A stretch of 41,170 bases of DNA from Ileibacterium valens. Lineage in GTDB: Bacteria > Bacillota_I > Bacilli_A > Erysipelotrichales > Erysipelotrichaceae. Position 1 is the first letter of the stretch. Every line of letters starts with the position of its first letter. Below are positions 3,792-40,642 of this stretch, in pieces. The stretch is taken from NCBI RefSeq assembly GCF_001945525.1, contig NZ_MPJW01000078.1:1-41170 (forward strand), in the 5' to 3' direction. The notes beneath the pieces were generated by a model. The model was not told the DNA's origin, searched no databases, and saw nothing but the letters and a program-made list of their open reading frames with translations. The translations under genes and the position numbers were made by a program.

Positions 3792-5259
3792 TTTTTAGCA
3801 CATCCGAACGTGTCAGCTTCTTAGCTGGCACGTTTTCAATATTTAAGGCAATGATCATTTTGGCATCATTGCCTTTTTCTTCGTCAAAAAGATAGACCGA
3901 ATTTACAAGAGAGTTAATAACTGCTTTCTTATAATCAAAGTCATTTATATCTCCGGCTCTAAACTTCTCTAGCCAGAAAACGATATGATCCTTTGTAAAG
4001 GCTGGCTTCTTTAACCTTTCGCGAACAATCTTATCTGCAAGAATTGACTGCTGATCTTCCAGATCTATAAGGCGCTCCTTCGTTTTTGGGGTAAAAATGC
4101 CTTCTTCGATCGCTGCTAAAATATTTTCAATCTTTTTAGTGACTTCTTCATGTTCTGCTTCCAGTGATACCAAAAGACTTTTATTTGAAGCTTCTTCTTC
4201 CAGAAGAGCATACTCTTTCTCAGCAATCTGTTCGATCATGTCATCTGTCAGGACTTCACGACAGATGTAGGCTACTACTGTATCTTCCAGATCTGTCTTT
4301 CTTTCGGTTTCCTTCGAACAAGATCCGGGGCGATTTTTTCTCTTGGAGCATTTGTAATAGTGATATCTCTGACCTGTGCTTGAGGTTCCCTGTTCTCCAA
4401 TCATGGTGGCCCCGCATTCCCCACAAAATAACTTGCCGGATAATAAATATTCTTCCATGGCTTTCTTCCTTCCTCTAGTATACCGATTGGCTTCTATTCT
4501 TTTCTGTACAATTTCAAAAAGTTCTTTACTGATAATGGATGGTAAAGCATCTTCGTGGCGATGATCGCCATAGATATAGACTCCTGTATATCGTTCGTTT
4601 CTTAAAATTCCATGCAATCCATTTCTTTTAAACTCTCCACCTCTGCGGGTCTTGAAGCCTCTGTCATTTAGAAAGTCACAGATTTCAACTTTGCCGTATC
4701 CATCCGCATACATTTCAAAAATTATACGAACGGCTTCAGCTCCAACCGGCTCTAGGACAAAGCGGCCAGCTTCAACTTTATATCCTAATGGAGTTGCACC
4801 ATTACTTTTAGCATGCAGCGCGTTTTCTTCCAGCCCTCTCTTAGCAGACCTGGATAGATTTTCTGAATAATATTGGGCAAATCCCTCCATGATTGATTCC
4901 ATCAGACTGCTCTCTGGAGAGTCATCCAAAGGTAGAGTAGCGGAAATGATCCGTACTCCATTCTTCTTTAATTTACTCTTATAGACCGCTGTATCATACT
5001 TGTCTCTGGAGAACCGGTCGTGAGCATAAATCAGAACTGTGTTAAATTCGCCTTTGGAGCTGTCGCTAATCATATGCTGAAAAGCTGGACGCTGGTCTGT
5101 TCGACCCGAGATTGCACTGTCTGTATATTCACGAATTACTTCCAGATCGTGATCGGCAGCAAAGCGGTGACAAACTCTAAGTTGCGATTCAATACTTTCT
5201 TCTCTCTGGTTGCTGCTAGAGTATCGGGCATAGATTACAGCAGTTTTAACTTCGTTCAT
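3733..5259 (-). CDS. int: Serine recombinase (phage integrase) with host-derived C-terminus
   Basis: The 508-residue enzyme has a resolvase-type catalytic domain (about 5-145; YARYSSSNQ with Ser14 as likely nucleophile), a recombinase DNA-binding domain (about 155-265), a zinc ribbon (Cys279, Cys282, Cys304, Cys314) and a coiled-coil region (about 345-415). It would integrate and excise the prophage at short att sites. The ribosome site AAAGGA is 8 nt before ATG 5259. Residues after Met490 are read from the antisense of tRNA-Leu. In the excised circle the frame would instead continue for 22 codons encoded at 40839-40901 and stop there, giving a 512-residue native protein. It is the last gene of the minus-strand lysogeny operon. 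Confidence 0.93.
   Translation of the reverse strand: MNEVKTAVIYARYSSSNQREESIESQLRVCHRFAADHDLEVIREYTDSAISGRTDQRPAFQHMISDSSKGEFNTVLIYAHDRFSRDKYDTAVYKSKLKKNGVRIISATLPLDDSPESSLMESIMEGFAQYYSENLSRSAKRGLEENALHAKSNGATPLGYKVEAGRFVLEPVGAEAVRIIFEMYADGYGKVEICDFLNDRGFKTRRGGEFKRNGLHGILRNERYTGVYIYGDHRHEDALPSIISKELFEIVQKRIEANRYTRGRKKAMEEYLLSGKLFCGECGATMIGEQGTSSTGQRYHYYKCSKRKNRPGSCSKETERKTDLEDTVVAYICREVLTDDMIEQIAEKEYALLEEEASNKSLLVSLEAEHEEVTKKIENILAAIEEGIFTPKTKERLIDLEDQQSILADKIVRERLKKPAFTKDHIVFWLEKFRAGDINDFDYKKAVINSLVNSVYLFDEEKGNDAKMIIALNIENVPAKKLTRSDVLKMVRPMRLERTRAKLTTPSK
3786..3795. other. attL core (left prophage boundary)
   Basis: The sequence TCACCATTTT at the 3' end of the tRNA gene recurs exactly at 40902-40911 and the match stops on both sides (C versus T before, T versus G after). 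It bounds a 37,116-bp element with an integrase gene at this end. In the reconstructed attP the core is centred in TGGT-TC-ACCA, which suggests TC as the crossover dinucleotide. Confidence rests on the coherence of this reconstruction, not on a long repeat. Confidence 0.78.
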
Positions 5260-16073: not shown

Positions 16074-16098
16074 AAGCCCGATTATTTCGGGCTTTTGT
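16074..16098 (+). terminator. Rho-independent terminator
   Basis: AAGCCCGA (16074-16081) and TCGGGCTT (16087-16094) form an 8-bp stem with a 5-nt loop and run into TTG. It ends the small regulatory unit and isolates the next cassette. Confidence 0.75.
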
Positions 16099-16167: not shown

Positions 16168-16194
16168 TTGTATAAGGCTTATAACTCGTATAAT
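16168..16194 (+). promoter_or_regulatory. Promoter of the three-gene accessory cassette
   Basis: A perfect -10 TATAAT (16189-16194) has a possible -35 TTGTAT (16168-16173) at a short 15-bp spacing, or CTATTG (16165-16170) at 18. The dyad TATAAGGCTTATA (16171-16183) lies in the spacer. Upstream at about 16149 is a half-site TTGGGTAT like the CI operator. Expression in the lysogen is plausible because this promoter is separated from the early operon by terminators. Confidence 0.5.
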
Positions 16195-16241: not shown

Positions 16242-16622
16242 ATGAATGAATTAAGTTATTTTATAGCAGCTAACGGAGTAAATGATAGTGGCCCCGTTAT
16301 AATTGATCAGCCTCTAACCTGTATCACTCTGCCTTCATTTCCGGGTTTGTTTTCTTTCTTTTTGGCGTTTGGCTTTTGTAATTGGGATTCTGAGAAAGAA
16401 CATCGTTTAAAAATTATAGGCAAAGATTGCACGGGAGGCGTGTTTTTAGATACCGGTGATTTAGAGATACCGCAAAATATTCCGAACAAAAGTATTGATA
16501 TTAAAATGAATATTCAAAACTTAAGACTTTCTATAGAAGGATTATATATATTCGAACTTTATCTCAATGATGAATGTGTTAATAGAATCAACCTCTATGG
16601 CTGTAAGGAGCTGGAAGCATGA
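16242..16622 (+). CDS. Cassette gene A: uncharacterised beta-rich protein
   Basis: 126 residues with AAAGGAAAG upstream. Predicted all-beta by eye: short strands such as LTCITLPSFPGLFSFFLAFG, HRLKIIGKD, and the C-terminal LSIEGLYIFELYLND. The arrangement (proline-rich edge strand, then FSF, then a final G-L-Y-x-F-x-L strand) resembles small beta-sandwich proteins of unknown function in mobile elements; I cannot name the family safely. Its stop overlaps the next start (ATGA). Base use is more AT-rich than that of the flanking phage genes, suggesting later acquisition. Confidence 0.8.
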   Translation: MNELSYFIAANGVNDSGPVIIDQPLTCITLPSFPGLFSFFLAFGFCNWDSEKEHRLKIIGKDCTGGVFLDTGDLEIPQNIPNKSIDIKMNIQNLRLSIEGLYIFELYLNDECVNRINLYGCKELEA

Positions 16623-17092
16623 ATCAAATGACATTTTCCGTTAACCCTTCCAAGGAATCAATAAGTCCTGTTGTTTCGATGTTGTTTTTAAGAAATGAGA
16701 AATGTTGCGAAAAATACCCAAAGAGAAATGTACCATCGAAAAACAGAGTCTCTTTCTGTGTAGATAATCAATTTATCTTGGCTCATAAGCAGTTAGAAAT
16801 CCTATCTTCTCTGGAAGAAAATTGGGATGGATACGGTAGTAAACCAATGTCCGAAGCCGCCGTGAATACAGCAGAAGAATTGCTCACGCGCCTTCCATAC
16901 GCACCGATGATTTACCCTGTTTCTGGGGGCGGTATCCAATTTGAATATGAGATCAACGATAAGTATCTCGAATTTGAGATACTAGATGACGGAAAAATTA
17001 AACTTTTTAGTTCAAACAGCGGAGAAGAGACAGAAAGAATAATTCAATTAAGAGAAGCAAGAGGATGGGTTAATGGATTCTATTTCAGCTGA
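16619..17092 (+). CDS. Cassette gene B: uncharacterised NWDGYG-motif protein
   Basis: 157 residues. The N-terminal 50 residues are basic and Cys-containing (RNEKCCEKYPKRNV). The core (about 55-145) has LEENWDGYGSKPMSEAAVNT, a helix AEELLTRLPYAP, a strand ending YPVSGGGIQFEYE and a final ELLEF-like strand (YLEFEILDDGKIKLF). This NWDGYG...GGIQFE(Y/W)E signature recurs, to my knowledge, in uncharacterised proteins of mobile regions. It is translationally coupled to gene A and overlaps gene C by 20 nt. Function unknown. Confidence 0.82.
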   Translation: MNQMTFSVNPSKESISPVVSMLFLRNEKCCEKYPKRNVPSKNRVSFCVDNQFILAHKQLEILSSLEENWDGYGSKPMSEAAVNTAEELLTRLPYAPMIYPVSGGGIQFEYEINDKYLEFEILDDGKIKLFSSNSGEETERIIQLREARGWVNGFYFS

Positions 17093-17459
17093 GTTTCATC
17101 CGAATGAACGTCTGCTTAGGGCAATATGGCCTAATGACGGAAAGTATAATCAATATTGGAAATGCGACAGACCATCTTCTGCTTGTTTCAAAGATCGCAG
17201 AGGTTTATCTGTGAACAGAACTGCAGGGAGAGATTTTCAGGGTGTATTAGAAATTACAAAGAAAAGTTTTTCGAACAGTGTCATTGCTTCAGTAAGTGTA
17301 CAGGATTGTAAGGATATTAATGCAAAGCCAAAATACTTGCCCAGCAAATCGAACGAACTCCATTCGGAAATACATAAAGATGATCAGTGTAAATGTTTAT
17401 CCGCCTCACAAGCTCGAGAGCTAGCGAAAAGAGCTAAGATTGATTACAAACCAGTTTAA
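17073..17459 (+). CDS. Cassette gene C: uncharacterised protein with conserved polar motifs
   Basis: 128 residues. Motifs include ERLLRAIWPNDGKYNQYW, RPSSACFKDRRGLSVNR (an SSAxFKD...LSVxR pattern) and HSEIHKDDQCKCLSASQARE near the end. The conserved-looking Arg, Asp, His and Glu residues suggest an enzyme or nucleotide-binding site, but I know no function. It completes a three-gene overlapping operon with its own promoter and terminator, inserted between the late regulator and the packaging genes, a usual cargo (moron) position. Confidence 0.8.
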   Translation: MDSISAEFHPNERLLRAIWPNDGKYNQYWKCDRPSSACFKDRRGLSVNRTAGRDFQGVLEITKKSFSNSVIASVSVQDCKDINAKPKYLPSKSNELHSEIHKDDQCKCLSASQARELAKRAKIDYKPV

Positions 17460-17535: not shown

Positions 17536-17568
17536 GACCCGGGTCACTTAAATACCCCGGGCCTTTTG
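17536..17568 (+). terminator. Terminator after three-gene cassette
   Basis: CCCGGG (17538-17543) pairs with CCCGGG (17556-17561) around a 12-nt loop, followed by CCTTTT. Confidence 0.6.
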
Positions 17569-21226: not shown

Positions 21227-21314
21227 CGCTGGATTGACTGAGGGCTTAAGGTGTCCGCCTTGAAAGCGGAAGATCTACACAGATCCGAAGGTTCGAATCC
21301 TTCATCCAGCGCCA
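21227..21314 (+). tRNA. Phage tRNA-Ser (anticodon TGA)
   Basis: 88 nt with encoded CCA. Acceptor arms CGCTGGA/TCCAGCG; anticodon arm TCCGC-CTTGAAA-GCGGA with TGA at the anticodon; a long variable arm (GATCTACACAGATC) and T-loop GGTTCGAATCC as in class II serine tRNAs. Confidence 0.92.
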
Positions 21315-21317
21315 TTT

Positions 21318-21405
21318 GCAAAGTTGGCTGAGCGGACGAAAGCAACCGTTTGCTAAACGGTCGATCCATAAGGATCCACAGGTTCGAATTCTGTACTTTG
21401 CGCCA
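21318..21405 (+). tRNA. Phage tRNA-Ser (anticodon GCT)
   Basis: 88 nt with encoded CCA, 3 nt after the first tRNA. Acceptor arms GCAAAGT/ACTTTGC; anticodon arm ACCGT-TTGCTAA-ACGGT giving GCT; long variable arm (GATCCATAAGGATC). With its neighbour it supplies UCN (UGA) and AGY (GCU) serine decoding. Confidence 0.92.
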
Positions 21406-26527: not shown

Positions 26528-26905
26528 ATGATCAAAGAAGACAGCGATAGCTTGAAGTGTGACTTAGCCGAAACATATCGAATTTATGATATGAAAGCTT
26601 TCCCTCTTCGGACTATCGCTGTTTTTGCGTATGGGCTGGGGAAAGATTCCAGAATTCACATGAAGTTATCAGGAGCTGAATGCTCATTTAGCTCGTTGCT
26701 GCTAGCTCAGGCGGTAGATGGAATCAATCTGCTCCTGTGGATGTTAGGAGGAGCGGATAACCAGAGACCGGAAAGCATAGTCGAAAAAATGATTCCTTCA
26801 CATTTACAACATAAAGGCTCAGAAGATCTTACCGTCTCTTTTGATAACGGAGAAGATTTCGAAGCATTCCGAAATTCTTTGATTGGAGGTGATGAGAATG
26901 GCTGA
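26528..26905 (+). CDS. Tail assembly chaperone T part (Gp15-like)
   Basis: 125 residues if started at ATG 26528, but normally expected as the frameshifted extension of chaperone G from 26510. Motifs: KEDSDSLKCDLAETYRIYDM, PLRTIAVFAYGLGKDSRIHM. This is the Gp15/DUF5361-like protein found between G and tape measure. The ATG has no ribosome site, supporting expression mainly by frameshifting. It overlaps the tape measure start by 8 nt. Confidence 0.8.
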   Translation: MIKEDSDSLKCDLAETYRIYDMKAFPLRTIAVFAYGLGKDSRIHMKLSGAECSFSSLLLAQAVDGINLLLWMLGGADNQRPESIVEKMIPSHLQHKGSEDLTVSFDNGEDFEAFRNSLIGGDENG

Positions 26906-27397
26906 AAATACAATTGGTCAGGCTTATGTCCAAATCGTGCCGTCAGCCAAAGGAATCAAGGGAGCGTTGGCCCAACAGTTTGATGGCGAAGGAACCGCAA
27001 TTGCGGACTCGCTGATGAGCAAGATCAAAGGCGCTTTAGCCGCAGCTGGAATAGGGGCGGCTATCGGTGCGGCTTTTAAAACGGCGCTGTCAGAAAGCGC
27101 CAAACTGGAACAGTCACTCGGCGGGATTGATACCCTCTTTAAAGGCTCGGCGGATACTGTTAAAGCTTATGCGAGAAATGCATTTAAAGATGCTGGGGTA
27201 TCGGCTAATGAGTATATGGAAAACGTTACTTCGTTTTCCGCTTCTTTGATTTCATCGTGCGGCAACGACACCGCTAAAGCAGCAGAAACCGCAAACAGAG
27301 CAATGATCGATATGTCGGATAACGCCAATAAGATGGGCTCGAATATGGCAGATATCCAAAATGCCTACCAAGGTTTCGCCAAACAAAACTATACGAT
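26898..27397 (+). CDS. Tape measure protein, exon 1
   Basis: Start ATG 26898 (GGAGG 8 nt upstream). Encodes the conserved N-terminus (AENTIGQAYVQIVPSAKGIK, then LEQSLGGIDTLFKGSADTV and MADIQNAYQGFAKQNYT). The frame is broken at 27397, after ACG AT, by a group I intron. Exon 1 (500 nt) plus exon 2 (2146 nt) gives 882 codons exactly in frame, i.e. an 881-residue protein with the expected junction NYTMLDNLKLGYGG. It sets tail length. Confidence 0.9.
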
Positions 27398-28240
27398 AAA
27401 CTTAATGTCCGCTATGCCAGTGATGGCATAGTGATTTCTTGTGAACCTTATCAAGGGTGTGGGCTTTGTGCCTGCTAACGGGGGAAATCTAAACCGAAAG
27501 GCATGACAATCCCGTGCTAAGCTATATACCAATTATTCCTGTTAGATAGCTGAAATTGTGCTATGATAGGTATATAGAAAGTGTAACGACTATGAGTTAG
27601 TTACTCAGTACGGCTTCTATTGATACGAAGCTGGAAGCGCAAGACACTTTTACTAACAGGAGGATTTCTAGTGGAAGAATTCAGACCAATTAAAGATTTG
27701 CCCGGATATTCCGTCAGCAACAAAGGCAGGGTTAGAAAGGACTCGACAGGACAAATCATGGTTCTAAGCAAAAACGGTGGGTACTGTCGTATCACTATAA
27801 GCAAACACGTTCATCGGCTTGTTGCAGAGGCATTTATTGAAAAGCCGCATGAATCAAAGGCGTGGGTGGACCACATAGACGGAAACAGATCGAATAATGA
27901 TGTTTCAAATCTGCGCTGGGTCACACCTTCTGAAAATTGCCTTGCTTATGGCTATCATTCGAGAATCAAAAATAAAAGACGACCGGTTAAAGCCGTCCAT
28001 ACAGATGGGCAAGAAATTCTCTTCGAATCAAGACAGCAGGCAGCCGAATATTTTGGATGCTCTGACTCGGAAATTGTTTACGGTAAAACATATCAAAAAC
28101 ATTCTCCAAAGGTCAGAAGTAATCCAAATGCTCATGACAAAAAAGGCTGGAGATTCGAGAAAGTAAAAGATGAAGATATAGTCTAATCCCTGATAGCCGA
28201 GAGGCTGTTTTTAAATACCATGAAAATGGGGGTATAAATG
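27398..28240 (+). ncRNA. Group I intron in the tape measure gene
   Basis: 843 nt. The upstream exon ends in T and the intron ends in G, as group I splicing requires, and joining 27397 to 28241 restores the conserved protein. Near the 5' end CTATGCCA-GTGA-TGGCATAG (27412-27431) forms a perfect stem with a GNRA loop (P2-like). GACTAT (27588-27593) and ATAGTC (28178-28183) can form P7. A homing endonuclease gene fills the interior, its stop codon lying just after the P7 strand. Confidence 0.88.
27671..28186 (+). CDS. Intron-encoded HNH homing endonuclease (NUMOD4-HNH-NUMOD1)
   Basis: 171 residues starting at GTG 27671, with CAGGAGG 7 nt upstream; the frame is open further upstream but without a site. 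NUMOD4 (about 3-25: FRPIKDLPGYSVSNKGRV), HNH (about 45-90: VHRLVAEAFI, VDHIDGNRSNNDVSNLRWVT) and a C-terminal NUMOD1-like domain (VKAVHTDGQEILFESRQQAA). It would cut intronless tape measure genes to spread the intron. Its last codons double as the ribozyme P7 strand. Confidence 0.92.
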   Translation: MEEFRPIKDLPGYSVSNKGRVRKDSTGQIMVLSKNGGYCRITISKHVHRLVAEAFIEKPHESKAWVDHIDGNRSNNDVSNLRWVTPSENCLAYGYHSRIKNKRRPVKAVHTDGQEILFESRQQAAEYFGCSDSEIVYGKTYQKHSPKVRSNPNAHDKKGWRFEKVKDEDIV

Positions 28241-30386
28241 GTTAGACAACTTGAAGCTCGGCTATGGCGGTACTCAGGAAGAAATGAAGCGTCTGGTCCA
28301 TGATGCTTCACAAATGACAGATGTCCAAAGTAAATTGAATGTTTCTGTTAAAGATGGAGACCTGAGTTTTGCTAACATTGCGAATGCCATCAGTGTAGTT
28401 CAAGACAACCTTGGAATTGCCGGAACAACTGCAGAGGAAGCCAAAACAACTTTTTCAGGATCATTTGGAATGATGAAGGCAGCCGCCATGGATTTAATGG
28501 GATATCTGGGGGCTGAAGAAATGTACAGCTTTGTGCCTCAGGCCCTTGAGAACCTTGCTACTTCTGTGGATATATTTTTCTTTGGGAATTTTTTACCTAT
28601 GGTTGGCCGAATTGTTGAGCAGATCCCATCAGTACTTTCTCAAGGGCTAGGGATGCTTACCGATCGATTAAATAATGCCGGATCTCTGGCAACTTCAGGA
28701 TTTATTACCGGATTTATCCAGGGGATTCCGGGACTGATCAAAGCCGCTGCTGAGTTCGTTGCGGCAATTGTAAATTACATCATCACTCATAAAGATGAGT
28801 TTTTCCAAATCGCTCGTGACTGTGTCGAAGCATTTGTAAAAGGTTTGGGAGAAGTGATCCCAATGAGCGAGGAAACCATGGCAAAGCTTCCCGGAGTGAT
28901 TGAGAAAGCACTTCAGGGGATTGCTTTACTTAAAGTGGGTTCGATTCTCCAACCGTTTGTATCTCAATTCGGAGGAGTGATAGGCGGAGCTTTTAAAGGA
29001 GCCTGGTCACAGGCTTCAACTTTCTTCGGGCTGATGAAATCCGGTGGTGGAGTGTTCAGCAATCTTGCTTTGATGGTTTCGCAAGGAACCGGACCAATGG
29101 CAAGCCTTGCCGCCAGTTTCGTTAATGCTGGTGGCGGTCTTTCGGGATTTATGGCTTTGTTAAAAGGGTTTGGATCCGCTTTGATATCAGCGATTGCTTC
29201 TCCAGTAGCTTTAATCACTGCAGCTATTGCGGCTTTGATTGGTGCCTTCATGCATCTGTGGAACACCAACGACGAATTCAAAAACAATATGATTGCGATC
29301 TGGAATGATTTAGTTTCGGCAGTCAATGATTTTTGTCAGGGAATCGTTGATCGAGTAAATGCGTTGGGATTCGATTTCGAAAGCGTCGGAGAGATGATCA
29401 GCGCTATTTGGAATGGATTCTGCGAGATGCTAGCGCCTGTGTTTGAGGGGGCGTGGGCAGTGATTTCCGCGGTATTGCAGGGAGCGTTGGATATAATTAC
29501 CGGCTTGCTTGATATATTCATTGGATTATTTACAGGCAATTGGTCACAACTCTGGACGGGAGTTCAGGAAATTGCAGCAGGTGTTTGGAATGCTATTTGT
29601 GGAATTTTCTCAGCGGCATGGAATATGATCATTGGTTTACTTGATTGGTTTTGTGGATTATTTGGTACCACGTGGTCTGCAACCTGGGCTAGTGTTCAGG
29701 CTACTGTATCGAGCATCTGGAATGGGATTGTTTCTTTCCTATCCGGAATATGGAATGGACTTGTAGCTACAGCAACTTCGATTTTCAACAATATAAAAAC
29801 AGCTGTAACACAGGCTATGCAAAGTGCTATCGACATGATTACGAACATTTGGAATGGAGTAACAAGCACTTTATCAAGCATCTGGAATGGTATAGTGTCG
29901 ACTGCTCGAAGTATTTTTGACGGTGTGTATAACGCAATAGTTGGTCCGTTTCAGCGAGCTAAAGAAACCGTCCAGGGGATTTGGGACTGGATAACCGGGC
30001 ATTCGGAAGTAAACGTCAAAGTAAACCAGTCATCTGGTGGGTATGGATCGAGCTCAGCGGCTCATGCTGCAGGCGGCGTTTTCACCAGAGCTACTCTTTT
30101 ACCTTCTGTTTATGGAGCAACACATTTAGTTGGAGAAGCAGGACCTGAAGCTATTCTGCCACTGACGGAGTTTTACCGATCTATGGATCGATCCATTAAA
30201 GAAGGATATTCCGCAGCGGCGGCAAATCCACAACTTGATGTTGTGATTGATCTGCTGGCGGCTATTGCCGGTAAATCCACAACAATTGTCATGGATAAAA
30301 AAACAGTTGGTCAAATTGTGGCAGATGAAGTCGAAAAGGCAATCAACAAAAAGGCTGTATTGCGGACTAGATTGGCAGGTGGTTAG
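28241..30386 (+). CDS. Tape measure protein, exon 2
   Basis: Continues at LDNLKLGYGGTQEEMKRLVH. The middle is hydrophobic and helical (about residues 380-480 of the spliced protein), followed by a run of tryptophan-rich repeats of the form IWNGI/FxGIWN spaced about 11 or multiples of 11 residues apart (for example SIWNGIVSFLSGIWNGLVAT), then a C-terminal GGVFTRATLLPSVYGATHLV segment ending in GEAGPEAILPLTEF. That last motif is standard for tape measure proteins. It overlaps no other gene and is followed by Dit. Confidence 0.92.
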
Positions 30387-40001: not shown

Positions 40002-40029
40002 GGGGCTCCGATTTGGAGTCCCGTTTTTT
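40002..40029. terminator. Bidirectional terminator between lysin and HicAB
   Basis: GGGGCTCC (40002-40009) and GGAGTCCC (40015-40022) pair over 8 bp (one G-T); TTTTTT follows on the plus strand and an A run on the left gives T on the minus strand. It serves both convergent units, overlapping the HicB stop. Confidence 0.8.
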
Positions 40030-40423
40030 AGTTGGATAAGCCGATTTCATGCTTTAACGCTTCCTGAAGCACTTTAGAAAACTTAATTCTTTTTGCTTTG
40101 CAAGTGTCATCTAACCACTTTGGAATGCTTAAAGTTTTCTTTACCGGTTTTTCAAAATTCTTTTTGATGTAGTCATCTACGTCAAATGAAACAAGTACCG
40201 GAAAGCTTCCGTCATCAGGTTTAATATCTTCGATTTTAGAGGGTTCCGGAACCGCTTCAGAATGAAGTTTTGCCCAGTGGAATTCACCGGCAAGAAGATC
40301 AACGGCCATCGCCATGGCATCGTCGTAGGAATTGCCAAAAGTGGCCAGATCATTTAAGTCCGGAAAAACGACCGAATAAGATCCATTTTCTTTAAAGAAT
40401 AGCGCAGGATAATTAATATACAT
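40028..40423 (-). CDS. hicB: HicB-type antitoxin
   Basis: 131 residues. N-terminal degenerate RNase-H-like HicB fold (about 1-60: YINYPALFFKENGSYSVVFP, DLNDLATFGNSYDDAMAMAV) and a C-terminal RHH-like DNA-binding tail (KTLSIPKWLDDTCKAKRIKF). It should bind and neutralise HicA and repress the operon. The start ATG 40423 has only a weak site. Convergent with the endolysin gene. Confidence 0.9.
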   Translation of the reverse strand: MYINYPALFFKENGSYSVVFPDLNDLATFGNSYDDAMAMAVDLLAGEFHWAKLHSEAVPEPSKIEDIKPDDGSFPVLVSFDVDDYIKKNFEKPVKKTLSIPKWLDDTCKAKRIKFSKVLQEALKHEIGLSN

Positions 40424-40459
40424 ATGGTTTACTGATAAACTTAAACAAGAGCAGGGGGC

Positions 40460-40642
40460 TCATTTGAGCCCGGCCTGTTTTAAGATTGAATTGGCGGTTT
40501 TTAGCGGAAGGTCACCTTTATGATATGGGATGGTGACTTTCCATTTTTTAATTTGATGCATGTAATGATAATGCGATCCGTTCACCGATACCAAAAACCA
40601 ACCATCTTTCTTGATTGTCTTTTCAATTTCTCTAAAGTTCAT
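40460..40642 (-). CDS. hicA: HicA-type mRNA interferase toxin
   Basis: 60 residues with AGAAAGGAGG upstream of ATG 40642. HicA pattern: NFREIEKTIKKDGWFLVSVN, GSHYHYMH (catalytic His) and VTIPYHKGDLPLKTANSIL. It cleaves mRNA in translation unless bound by HicB. Toxin first, antitoxin second, the usual HicAB order. A stem-loop at 40456-40471 covers its stop codon and could modulate HicB translation. Confidence 0.92.
   Translation of the reverse strand: MNFREIEKTIKKDGWFLVSVNGSHYHYMHQIKKWKVTIPYHKGDLPLKTANSILKQAGLK

What the first reader, a model, noticed from the sequence alone, without database searches (positions are those of the whole stretch)
16242..17459. Three-gene overlapping cassette of unknown function with own promoter and terminator (best candidate for a new system)
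Genes A (beta-sandwich-like), B (NWDGYG...GGIQFEYE) and C (SSAxFKD...LSVxR) are translationally coupled, AT-richer than the neighbours and isolated by terminators on both sides, at a classical moron position between late regulator and packaging genes. I believe such proteins recur together in accessory DNA but know no function. Cargo expressed in the lysogen at such sites is often anti-phage defence or host fitness.
Basis: inference. Interest (0 to 1): 0.8.

Follow-up and report, generated by a model that had tools for sequence, protein, structure and literature searches.

The report
Three-gene mobile toxin-antitoxin-like defence cassette
Three overlapping genes carried by a gut-bacterial prophage turn out to be a mobile unit that recurs in unrelated phages, plasmids and mini-elements; two of them are a compact form of a predicted but untested anti-phage system (PDC-M32), and the last gene is predicted to fold like an NAD-using ADP-ribosyltransferase, so the unit probably works as a phage-triggered toxin-antitoxin.

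Summary
The three ORFs are real: A 16242-16622, B 16619-17092, C 17073-17459, overlapping by 4 and 20 bp, AT-rich, between terminator-like hairpins; an own promoter is not supported. C was found in 15 independent loci in at least three phyla, always directly after B; the full A-B-C order recurs in five. In two bacterial genomes the triad is cargo of a 2.5 or 5.3 kb element bounded by perfect repeats at a tRNA 3' end; in the smaller one the integrase is decayed while A-B-C is intact. Ten related prophages lack the cassette; one has a Panacea antitoxin gene there instead. B is the C-terminal domain of PADLOC PDC-M32A; C is a remote homologue of PDC-M32B. The third component varies: DUF6941 (A), DUF3467, or a fused 250-aa domain. 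C is modelled confidently (pLDDT 91.5); 16 of its top 19 PDB neighbours are KptA/Tpt1 (ADP-ribosyltransferase superfamily), but E-values are weak and profile comparison gives no support. Best reading: a tripartite toxin-antitoxin-like defence or addiction module (C ART-like toxin, B neutraliser, A exchangeable sensor), working like CmdTAC without being a member. Function is untested.

The parts
16074..16094 (+). Upstream intrinsic-terminator-like hairpin (AAGCCCGA-TTATT-TCGGGCTT + T tract) that separates the cassette from the gene before it
   Evidence: z = -3.7
16189..16194 (+). Perfect -10 hexamer TATAAT without a good -35; possible promoter of the cassette, not shown
   Evidence: sequence read directly; consensus scan did not call it
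16242..16622 (+). Gene A, DUF6941 (PF22091) protein, 126 aa, predicted sensor/stabiliser component; replaced by DUF3467 or by the N-terminal domain of PDC-M32A in related loci
   Evidence: Pfam 34.2 bits against cut-off 27, E 3.8e-8; phrog_5881 E 3e-12; replacements
16619..17092 (+). Gene B, 157 aa; low-confidence N-terminus (residues 1-36) then a folded alpha-alpha-5beta-alpha domain equal to the C-terminal domain of PDC-M32A; predicted neutraliser of C
   Evidence: PADLOC PDC-M32A E 5e-11, profile 264-359/375; AF2 model mean pLDDT 79.6, mostly above 90 over the domain
17073..17459 (+). Gene C, 128 aa; remote homologue of PDC-M32B; ART-like fold (nearest solved folds KptA/Tpt1); invariant E12, L14, R16, S46, R49, H97; predicted toxin/effector
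   Evidence: hhalign to the M32B clade prob 87.5, E 3.6e-6; homologues hit PDC-M32B at 3e-5; AF2 pLDDT 91.5; Foldseek; conservation
17537..17566 (+). Downstream GC-rich hairpin followed by TTTT, terminator-like
   Evidence: z = -2.5; loop too long for the scan

Best explanation
The cassette is a mobile, self-contained, tripartite toxin-antitoxin-like module, a compact divergent relative of the candidate defence system PDC-M32. SHOWN: B and C form a constant pair in phages, plasmids and integrated mini-elements. B is the C-terminal domain of PDC-M32A and C is related to PDC-M32B. A is one of several exchangeable third components. The site in this prophage is a variable cargo site. INFERRED: C is the effector, a small enzyme with an ADP-ribosyltransferase-like fold that would use NAD+ to modify RNA or another target, or simply consume NAD+, and so stop growth. 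B, translated from overlapping frames just before C, binds and silences it. A (or DUF3467, or the fused N-terminal domain) senses a phage or stress cue and keeps B active until it is titrated or removed, which releases C. Net effect: abortive defence of the lysogen against other phages and/or stabilisation of the element.
For: C next to B in 15 of 15 loci, gaps -23 to +3 bp. Triad A-B-C in the window, L020, L019, L023, L033. DUF3467-B-C in two phage contigs. Fused N-domain+B then C on plasmids and in viral contigs. B = PDC-M32A C-terminus; C related to PDC-M32B. C model pLDDT 91.5, pTM 0.86. 16 of the top 19 PDB hits are KptA/Tpt1 (best E 0.12, prob 0.80, TM 0.46), and rank 31 is AvrPphF ORF2 (HopF family), an ART-like fold from my own knowledge. 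Secondary-structure order in C (b-a-b-a-b-a-b-b) is what the ART core of KptA has (KptA side from general knowledge). Polar invariants R16, S46, R49, H97 suggest an active site. Mini-elements with perfect att-like repeats at tRNA-Ser and tRNA-Phe 3' ends, with a decayed integrase but intact A-B-C in L020. Empty or alternative cargo sites in ten related prophages, one with a SocA/Panacea antitoxin. The B domain also sits next to DUF4209 genes on Hymenobacter plasmids, as expected of a neutraliser shared between effectors.
Against: The ART assignment is structural only and weak: no Foldseek hit is below E 0.1, TM is under 0.5, and profile-profile comparison of C with KptA is at noise. The catalytic Glu of classical ARTs is not conserved (E99 is missing in L020 and in the M32B clade). 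B has no structural match of note, so its antitoxin role rests on gene order. Nothing shows toxicity, neutralisation, expression in the lysogen or defence. The gene order (candidate antitoxin first, toxin last) is common in toxin-antitoxin loci but proves nothing.
Confidence: 0.42

Rival explanations
1. Two-component core with A as a passenger: B-C alone is a classical toxin-antitoxin or addiction pair that stabilises prophages, plasmids and mini-elements, with no phage sensing.
For: C is always with B, while A is absent in L022 and replaced elsewhere. Cassettes lie on plasmids beside other TA modules (L015: vapBC, RelE/ParE). A occurs without B and C in L012.
Against: A third domain, as a gene or a fusion, is present directly upstream in 14 of 15 loci, which suggests it matters. 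The prophage site holds alternative cargo rather than a fixed stability function.
Confidence: 0.25
2. C is a non-toxic NAD+-dependent RNA-end repair or modification enzyme (KptA-like), helping the prophage or host against tRNA-cleaving defences.
For: The nearest folds are KptA/Tpt1. Large phages carry KptA for RNA repair (PMC9503650). The prophage carries two tRNA genes.
Against: C would have only the C-terminal, ART part and has no sequence match to KptA. No RNA ligase or 2H gene was recognised nearby. The strict partnership with B and the mini-elements point to a conflict module.
Confidence: 0.08
3. Superinfection exclusion, counter-defence or host-fitness cargo in which A-B-C act as a binding complex without enzymatic activity; C is not an ART.
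For: ART evidence is weak. Cassettes lie in typical moron sites (after lysis genes in L023, before packaging-type genes in L033 and the window).
Against: Invariant polar residues in C across very divergent homologues and a consistent set of enzyme folds as best matches.
Confidence: 0.2
4. Phage structural, packaging or regulatory component.
For: It sits between the late regulator and HNH/portal genes.
Against: Absent from ten related prophages at the same site, present on plasmids and in 2.5-5.3 kb mini-elements without virion genes, and at different places in different phages.
Confidence: 0.02

Closest known systems
PDC-M32 (PADLOC-DB phage defence candidate; unpublished candidate set, cited as Payne et al. 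2021 in PMC11811056)
   Same: B is homologous to the C-terminal domain of PDC-M32A, and C (through homologues and by profile comparison) to PDC-M32B; same order and close spacing.
   Different: The ~250-aa N-terminal domain of PDC-M32A is missing. A separate DUF6941 gene stands in its place, with no detectable homology to that domain. C itself scores under no PADLOC model, so annotation tools miss it.
CmdTAC / PD-T4-9 (toxin-antitoxin-chaperone system with an mRNA ADP-ribosyltransferase, PMC11618068)
   Same: Three small adjacent genes; predicted ART-like effector; a third component beside toxin and antitoxin that could be the sensor.
   Different: No PADLOC match of A, B or C to that system. 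CmdT is of the diphtheria-toxin type with an HY-[EDQ] triad; C has none. CmdC is SecB-like, A is DUF6941. Gene order T-A-C against A-B-C here.
KptA/Tpt1 RNA 2'-phosphotransferase (PF01885, ART superfamily)
   Same: Nearest solved folds to the model of C.
   Different: C is clearly shorter (128 against about 180 aa), appears to lack the N-terminal lobe, and has no detectable sequence similarity.
DUF6941 (PF22091) and DUF3467 (PF11950)
   Same: A is a DUF6941 protein over the curated cut-off; the equivalent gene in L024/L034 matches DUF3467 at about the cut-off.
   Different: Neither family has a known function. Full-text search found no paper on DUF6941 and one unrelated mention of DUF3467.

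Membership tests
PDC-M32 (PADLOC candidate) | PDC-M32A component | tested here: inconclusive
   B matches only profile positions 264-359 of 375 (E 5e-11); the N-terminal two thirds are absent.
PDC-M32 (PADLOC candidate) | PDC-M32B component | tested here: inconclusive
   The window's C has no direct hit; triad homologues L004, L023, L022 hit at 3e-5 to 3e-4; profile-profile E 3.6e-6, prob 87.5.
PDC-M32 (PADLOC candidate) | The two components adjacent, M32A-like then M32B-like | tested here: met
   15 of 15 loci, gap -23 to +3 bp.
PDC-M32 (PADLOC candidate) | Protects against phages | not testable with these tools
   Candidate status only; no experiment found.
CmdTAC / TAC systems | SecB-like chaperone component | tested here: not met
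   A is DUF6941, not SecB (PF02556). A SecB-like gene was seen only in L022, about 1.8 kb after B-C.
CmdTAC / TAC systems | ART toxin with HY-[EDQ] triad | tested here: not met
   Invariant residues of C are E12, L14, R16, S46, R49, H97.
ADP-ribosyltransferase superfamily (C) | ART fold | tested here: inconclusive
   16 of the top 19 Foldseek PDB hits are KptA, but best E 0.12 and TM 0.46; hhalign at noise.
ADP-ribosyltransferase superfamily (C) | NAD+ binding and transferase or NADase activity | not testable with these tools
   Needs purified protein.
Type II toxin-antitoxin system (B-C) | Two small adjoining genes, always paired, mobile distribution | tested here: met
Type II toxin-antitoxin system (B-C) | C toxic, B neutralises by binding | not testable with these tools
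   Needs expression assays and a complex.
DUF6941 (A) | Over the Pfam gathering score | tested here: met
   34.2 against 27 bits

The most novel reading that the evidence does not exclude
A new class of modular, phage-triggered toxin-antitoxin immunity: a constant core of neutraliser (B domain) and KptA-like ART toxin (C), coupled to interchangeable sensor or chaperone subunits (DUF6941, DUF3467, zinc ribbon, or the fused PDC-M32A N-domain), moving as prophage cargo, on plasmids, and as stand-alone tRNA-integrating mini-elements.
Probability: 0.33. Interest if true: 0.8.

Novelty: new variant of a known kind. Interest (0 to 1): 0.58.

Why it matters
It turns a bare candidate label (PDC-M32, no mechanism) and two domains of unknown function (DUF6941, DUF3467) into one testable model: a shared effector core with swappable sensors. 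It names the likely effector (C), its probable enzyme fold and the residues to mutate (R16, S46, R49, H97). It also explains why current defence finders miss this form: C scores under no model. If C is an ART toxin, it adds a small ART family to the RNA/NAD+ arm of phage defence beside CmdTAC and DarTG.

Tried and rejected
Direct profile searches of C (Pfam, PHROGs, NCBIfam, PADLOC) gave nothing usable; homologues had to be gathered step by step. A and C had no tblastn match in sequenced phages. Profiles of the wider C and B sets were too divergent for pattern scans, so subsets were used. SecB-like chaperone for A: rejected, A is DUF6941. DUF6941 = N-domain of PDC-M32A: no support. C against KptA by hhalign, local and global with 100 column shuffles each: noise. 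RES and KptA families are absent from sampled relatives, so no ART reference set came from there. B fold search: no match of note; the Rhs immunity protein TriTu at rank 20 (E 0.78) was not used as evidence. The weak C hit in G198 (L005, frame with four stops) was discarded as chance; L013 and L040 likewise.

Full report
OBSERVATION. GC is 0.370 against 0.423 for the window, in the lowest 4% of equal-sized windows. A terminator-like hairpin lies upstream (16074-16094, z = -3.7) and a GC-rich hairpin with TTTT downstream (about 17537-17566, z = -2.5). No sigma-70-type promoter is called in front of A; there is a perfect TATAAT at 16189 without a -35. So 'own terminator' holds and 'own promoter' is unproven.

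WHERE IT SITS. The window equals a 41,170-base IMG/VR prophage record. Homologues in the same GTDB family come from a MAG titled Erysipelotrichaceae (L004 and L020 encode the same proteins). The cassette lies between a late regulator (phrog_36) and an HNH gene, portal and minor head genes. I fetched the portal-upstream region of ten related prophages (portal 55-64% identical). None has A, B or C there. In most, a regulator-like ORF is followed by HNH and portal with little or nothing between. One (G024, L066) carries a SocA/Panacea antitoxin gene at that place, and one (G165, L064) a phage metallopeptidase-like gene. The site is a variable cargo site.

RELATIVES. C is rare: 2 of 273 genomes of the family (a third weak hit discarded), 2 of 395 of a class sample. 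Profile-guided scans gave C in 15 independent loci, and in every one B lies immediately upstream, gap -23 to +3 bp. Five loci have DUF6941-B-C: the window, L020, L019, L023 and L033. L033 carries the triad just upstream of a ParB/DUF4417 gene, by eye shortly before packaging-type genes, a position like the window's; L023 carries it after the holin-like/GH25 lysis genes at a prophage end. Two loci have DUF3467-B-C (L024, L034). Six have B fused behind a ~250-aa domain, then C (L008, L014, L015, L016, L036, L037; Rhodococcus, Rhizobium, Limnohabitans and Sinomonas plasmids and two viral contigs). One has B behind a zinc-ribbon-like N-terminus (L038, by eye). One has B-C alone (L022).

MINI-ELEMENTS. 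In L019 the triad lies in a 5.3-kb stretch bounded by a perfect 18-bp repeat, one copy of which overlaps the 3' end of a tRNA-Ser gene, with an integrase at the other end. In L020 it lies in a 2.5-kb stretch bounded by a perfect 17-bp repeat, one copy at the 3' end of tRNA-Phe. The L020 integrase is decayed (premature stop, N-terminal part missing) while A, B and C are intact. The triad is therefore a cargo unit in its own right, independent of any virion.

IDENTITY. A is DUF6941 (PF22091, 34.2 bits against a cut-off of 27). B matches the last ~100 residues of PADLOC PDC-M32A (E 5e-11). C has no direct family hit, but its triad homologues hit PDC-M32B (3e-5), and the profile of triad C proteins matches the PDC-M32B clade (prob 87.5, E 3.6e-6). 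PDC systems are unpublished candidates from PADLOC (PMC11811056). The one paper found that names PDC-M32 notes components of it in Sinorhizobium prophages (PMC12429752). DUF6941 shows no homology to the PDC-M32A N-domain.

STRUCTURE. C is modelled with high confidence (pLDDT 91.5, pTM 0.86). Foldseek against PDB puts KptA/Tpt1 in 16 of the top 19 places (several organisms), best E 0.12, probability 0.80, TM 0.46; AvrPphF ORF2 is at rank 31. KptA belongs to the ART superfamily (PMC9503650). The order of strands and helices in C is that of the ART core. The positions invariant across 13 divergent homologues are E12, L14, R16, S46, R49 and H97: R16 on the first strand, S46 and R49 on the second, H97 at the start of the strand where ARTs carry a catalytic residue (inference). 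Against this, sequence-profile comparison with KptA is at noise. B has a low-confidence N-terminus and a well-modelled alpha-alpha-five-strand-alpha domain without notable PDB neighbours.

MECHANISM (inferred). Constant partnership, overlapping translation, mobile distribution and an enzyme-like last gene fit a toxin-antitoxin core: B silences C. The third component changes family between lineages, as expected of a sensor or stabiliser. CmdTAC (PMC11618068) is a proven analogue: capsid protein removes the chaperone, the antitoxin is degraded, the ART toxin modifies mRNA. The present cassette fails two defining features of that family (SecB-like chaperone, HY-E triad), so it works like CmdTAC at most and is not a member. 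The B domain without C, next to DUF4209 genes on Hymenobacter plasmids, would fit a neutraliser used with more than one effector.

VERDICT. The finding holds and can be named: a compact, previously unannotated DUF6941-containing variant of PDC-M32, with a probable ART-like effector. Steps shown: pairing, homology, mobility, cargo-site context. Steps inferred: toxicity of C, neutralisation by B, sensing by A, anti-phage effect.

Noticed in passing
window 26883-30386: The tail tape-measure gene looks split by a NUMOD4-HNH endonuclease gene (27620-28186) with weak partial group I intron scores on both sides (27478-27592, 28040-28203, below the Rfam cut-off): probable group I intron with homing endonuclease.
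   Followed up: partly
window 21228-21402: Two tRNA genes between the minor head gene and the terminase large-subunit-like gene.
   Followed up: no
window 40028-40642 (-): HicB-like antitoxin (PF15919) followed by a HicA-like ORF at the right end of the prophage, near the lysin: another toxin-antitoxin cargo.
   Followed up: partly
L022 7480-8567: A SecB-like chaperone gene (PF02556) with an uncharacterised 221-aa gene before it, about 1.8 kb downstream of B-C in a 95-kb viral contig; possibly a separate chaperone-linked cargo.
   Followed up: no
L007 2208-3315; L009 893-3342: On Hymenobacter plasmids the B domain gene directly follows a DUF4209 gene whose C-terminus reads NLRNR[IV]AHG, HEPN-like by eye: possible second effector type paired with the B domain.
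   Followed up: no
L066 (reverse complement 3863-4423): SocA/Panacea antitoxin gene at the same site (late regulator to HNH/portal) in a related prophage: the site seems to be a cargo hotspot worth mining.
   Followed up: partly
L026 5538-6324: B domain gene alone in a large viral contig, directly after a NADAR/YbiA-like ORF (by eye; no Pfam match).
   Followed up: no
L012 531-1482 (-): DUF6941 gene without B or C in a phage context, followed by a 177-aa protein with a weak XhlA match and an HNH-like ORF.
   Followed up: no
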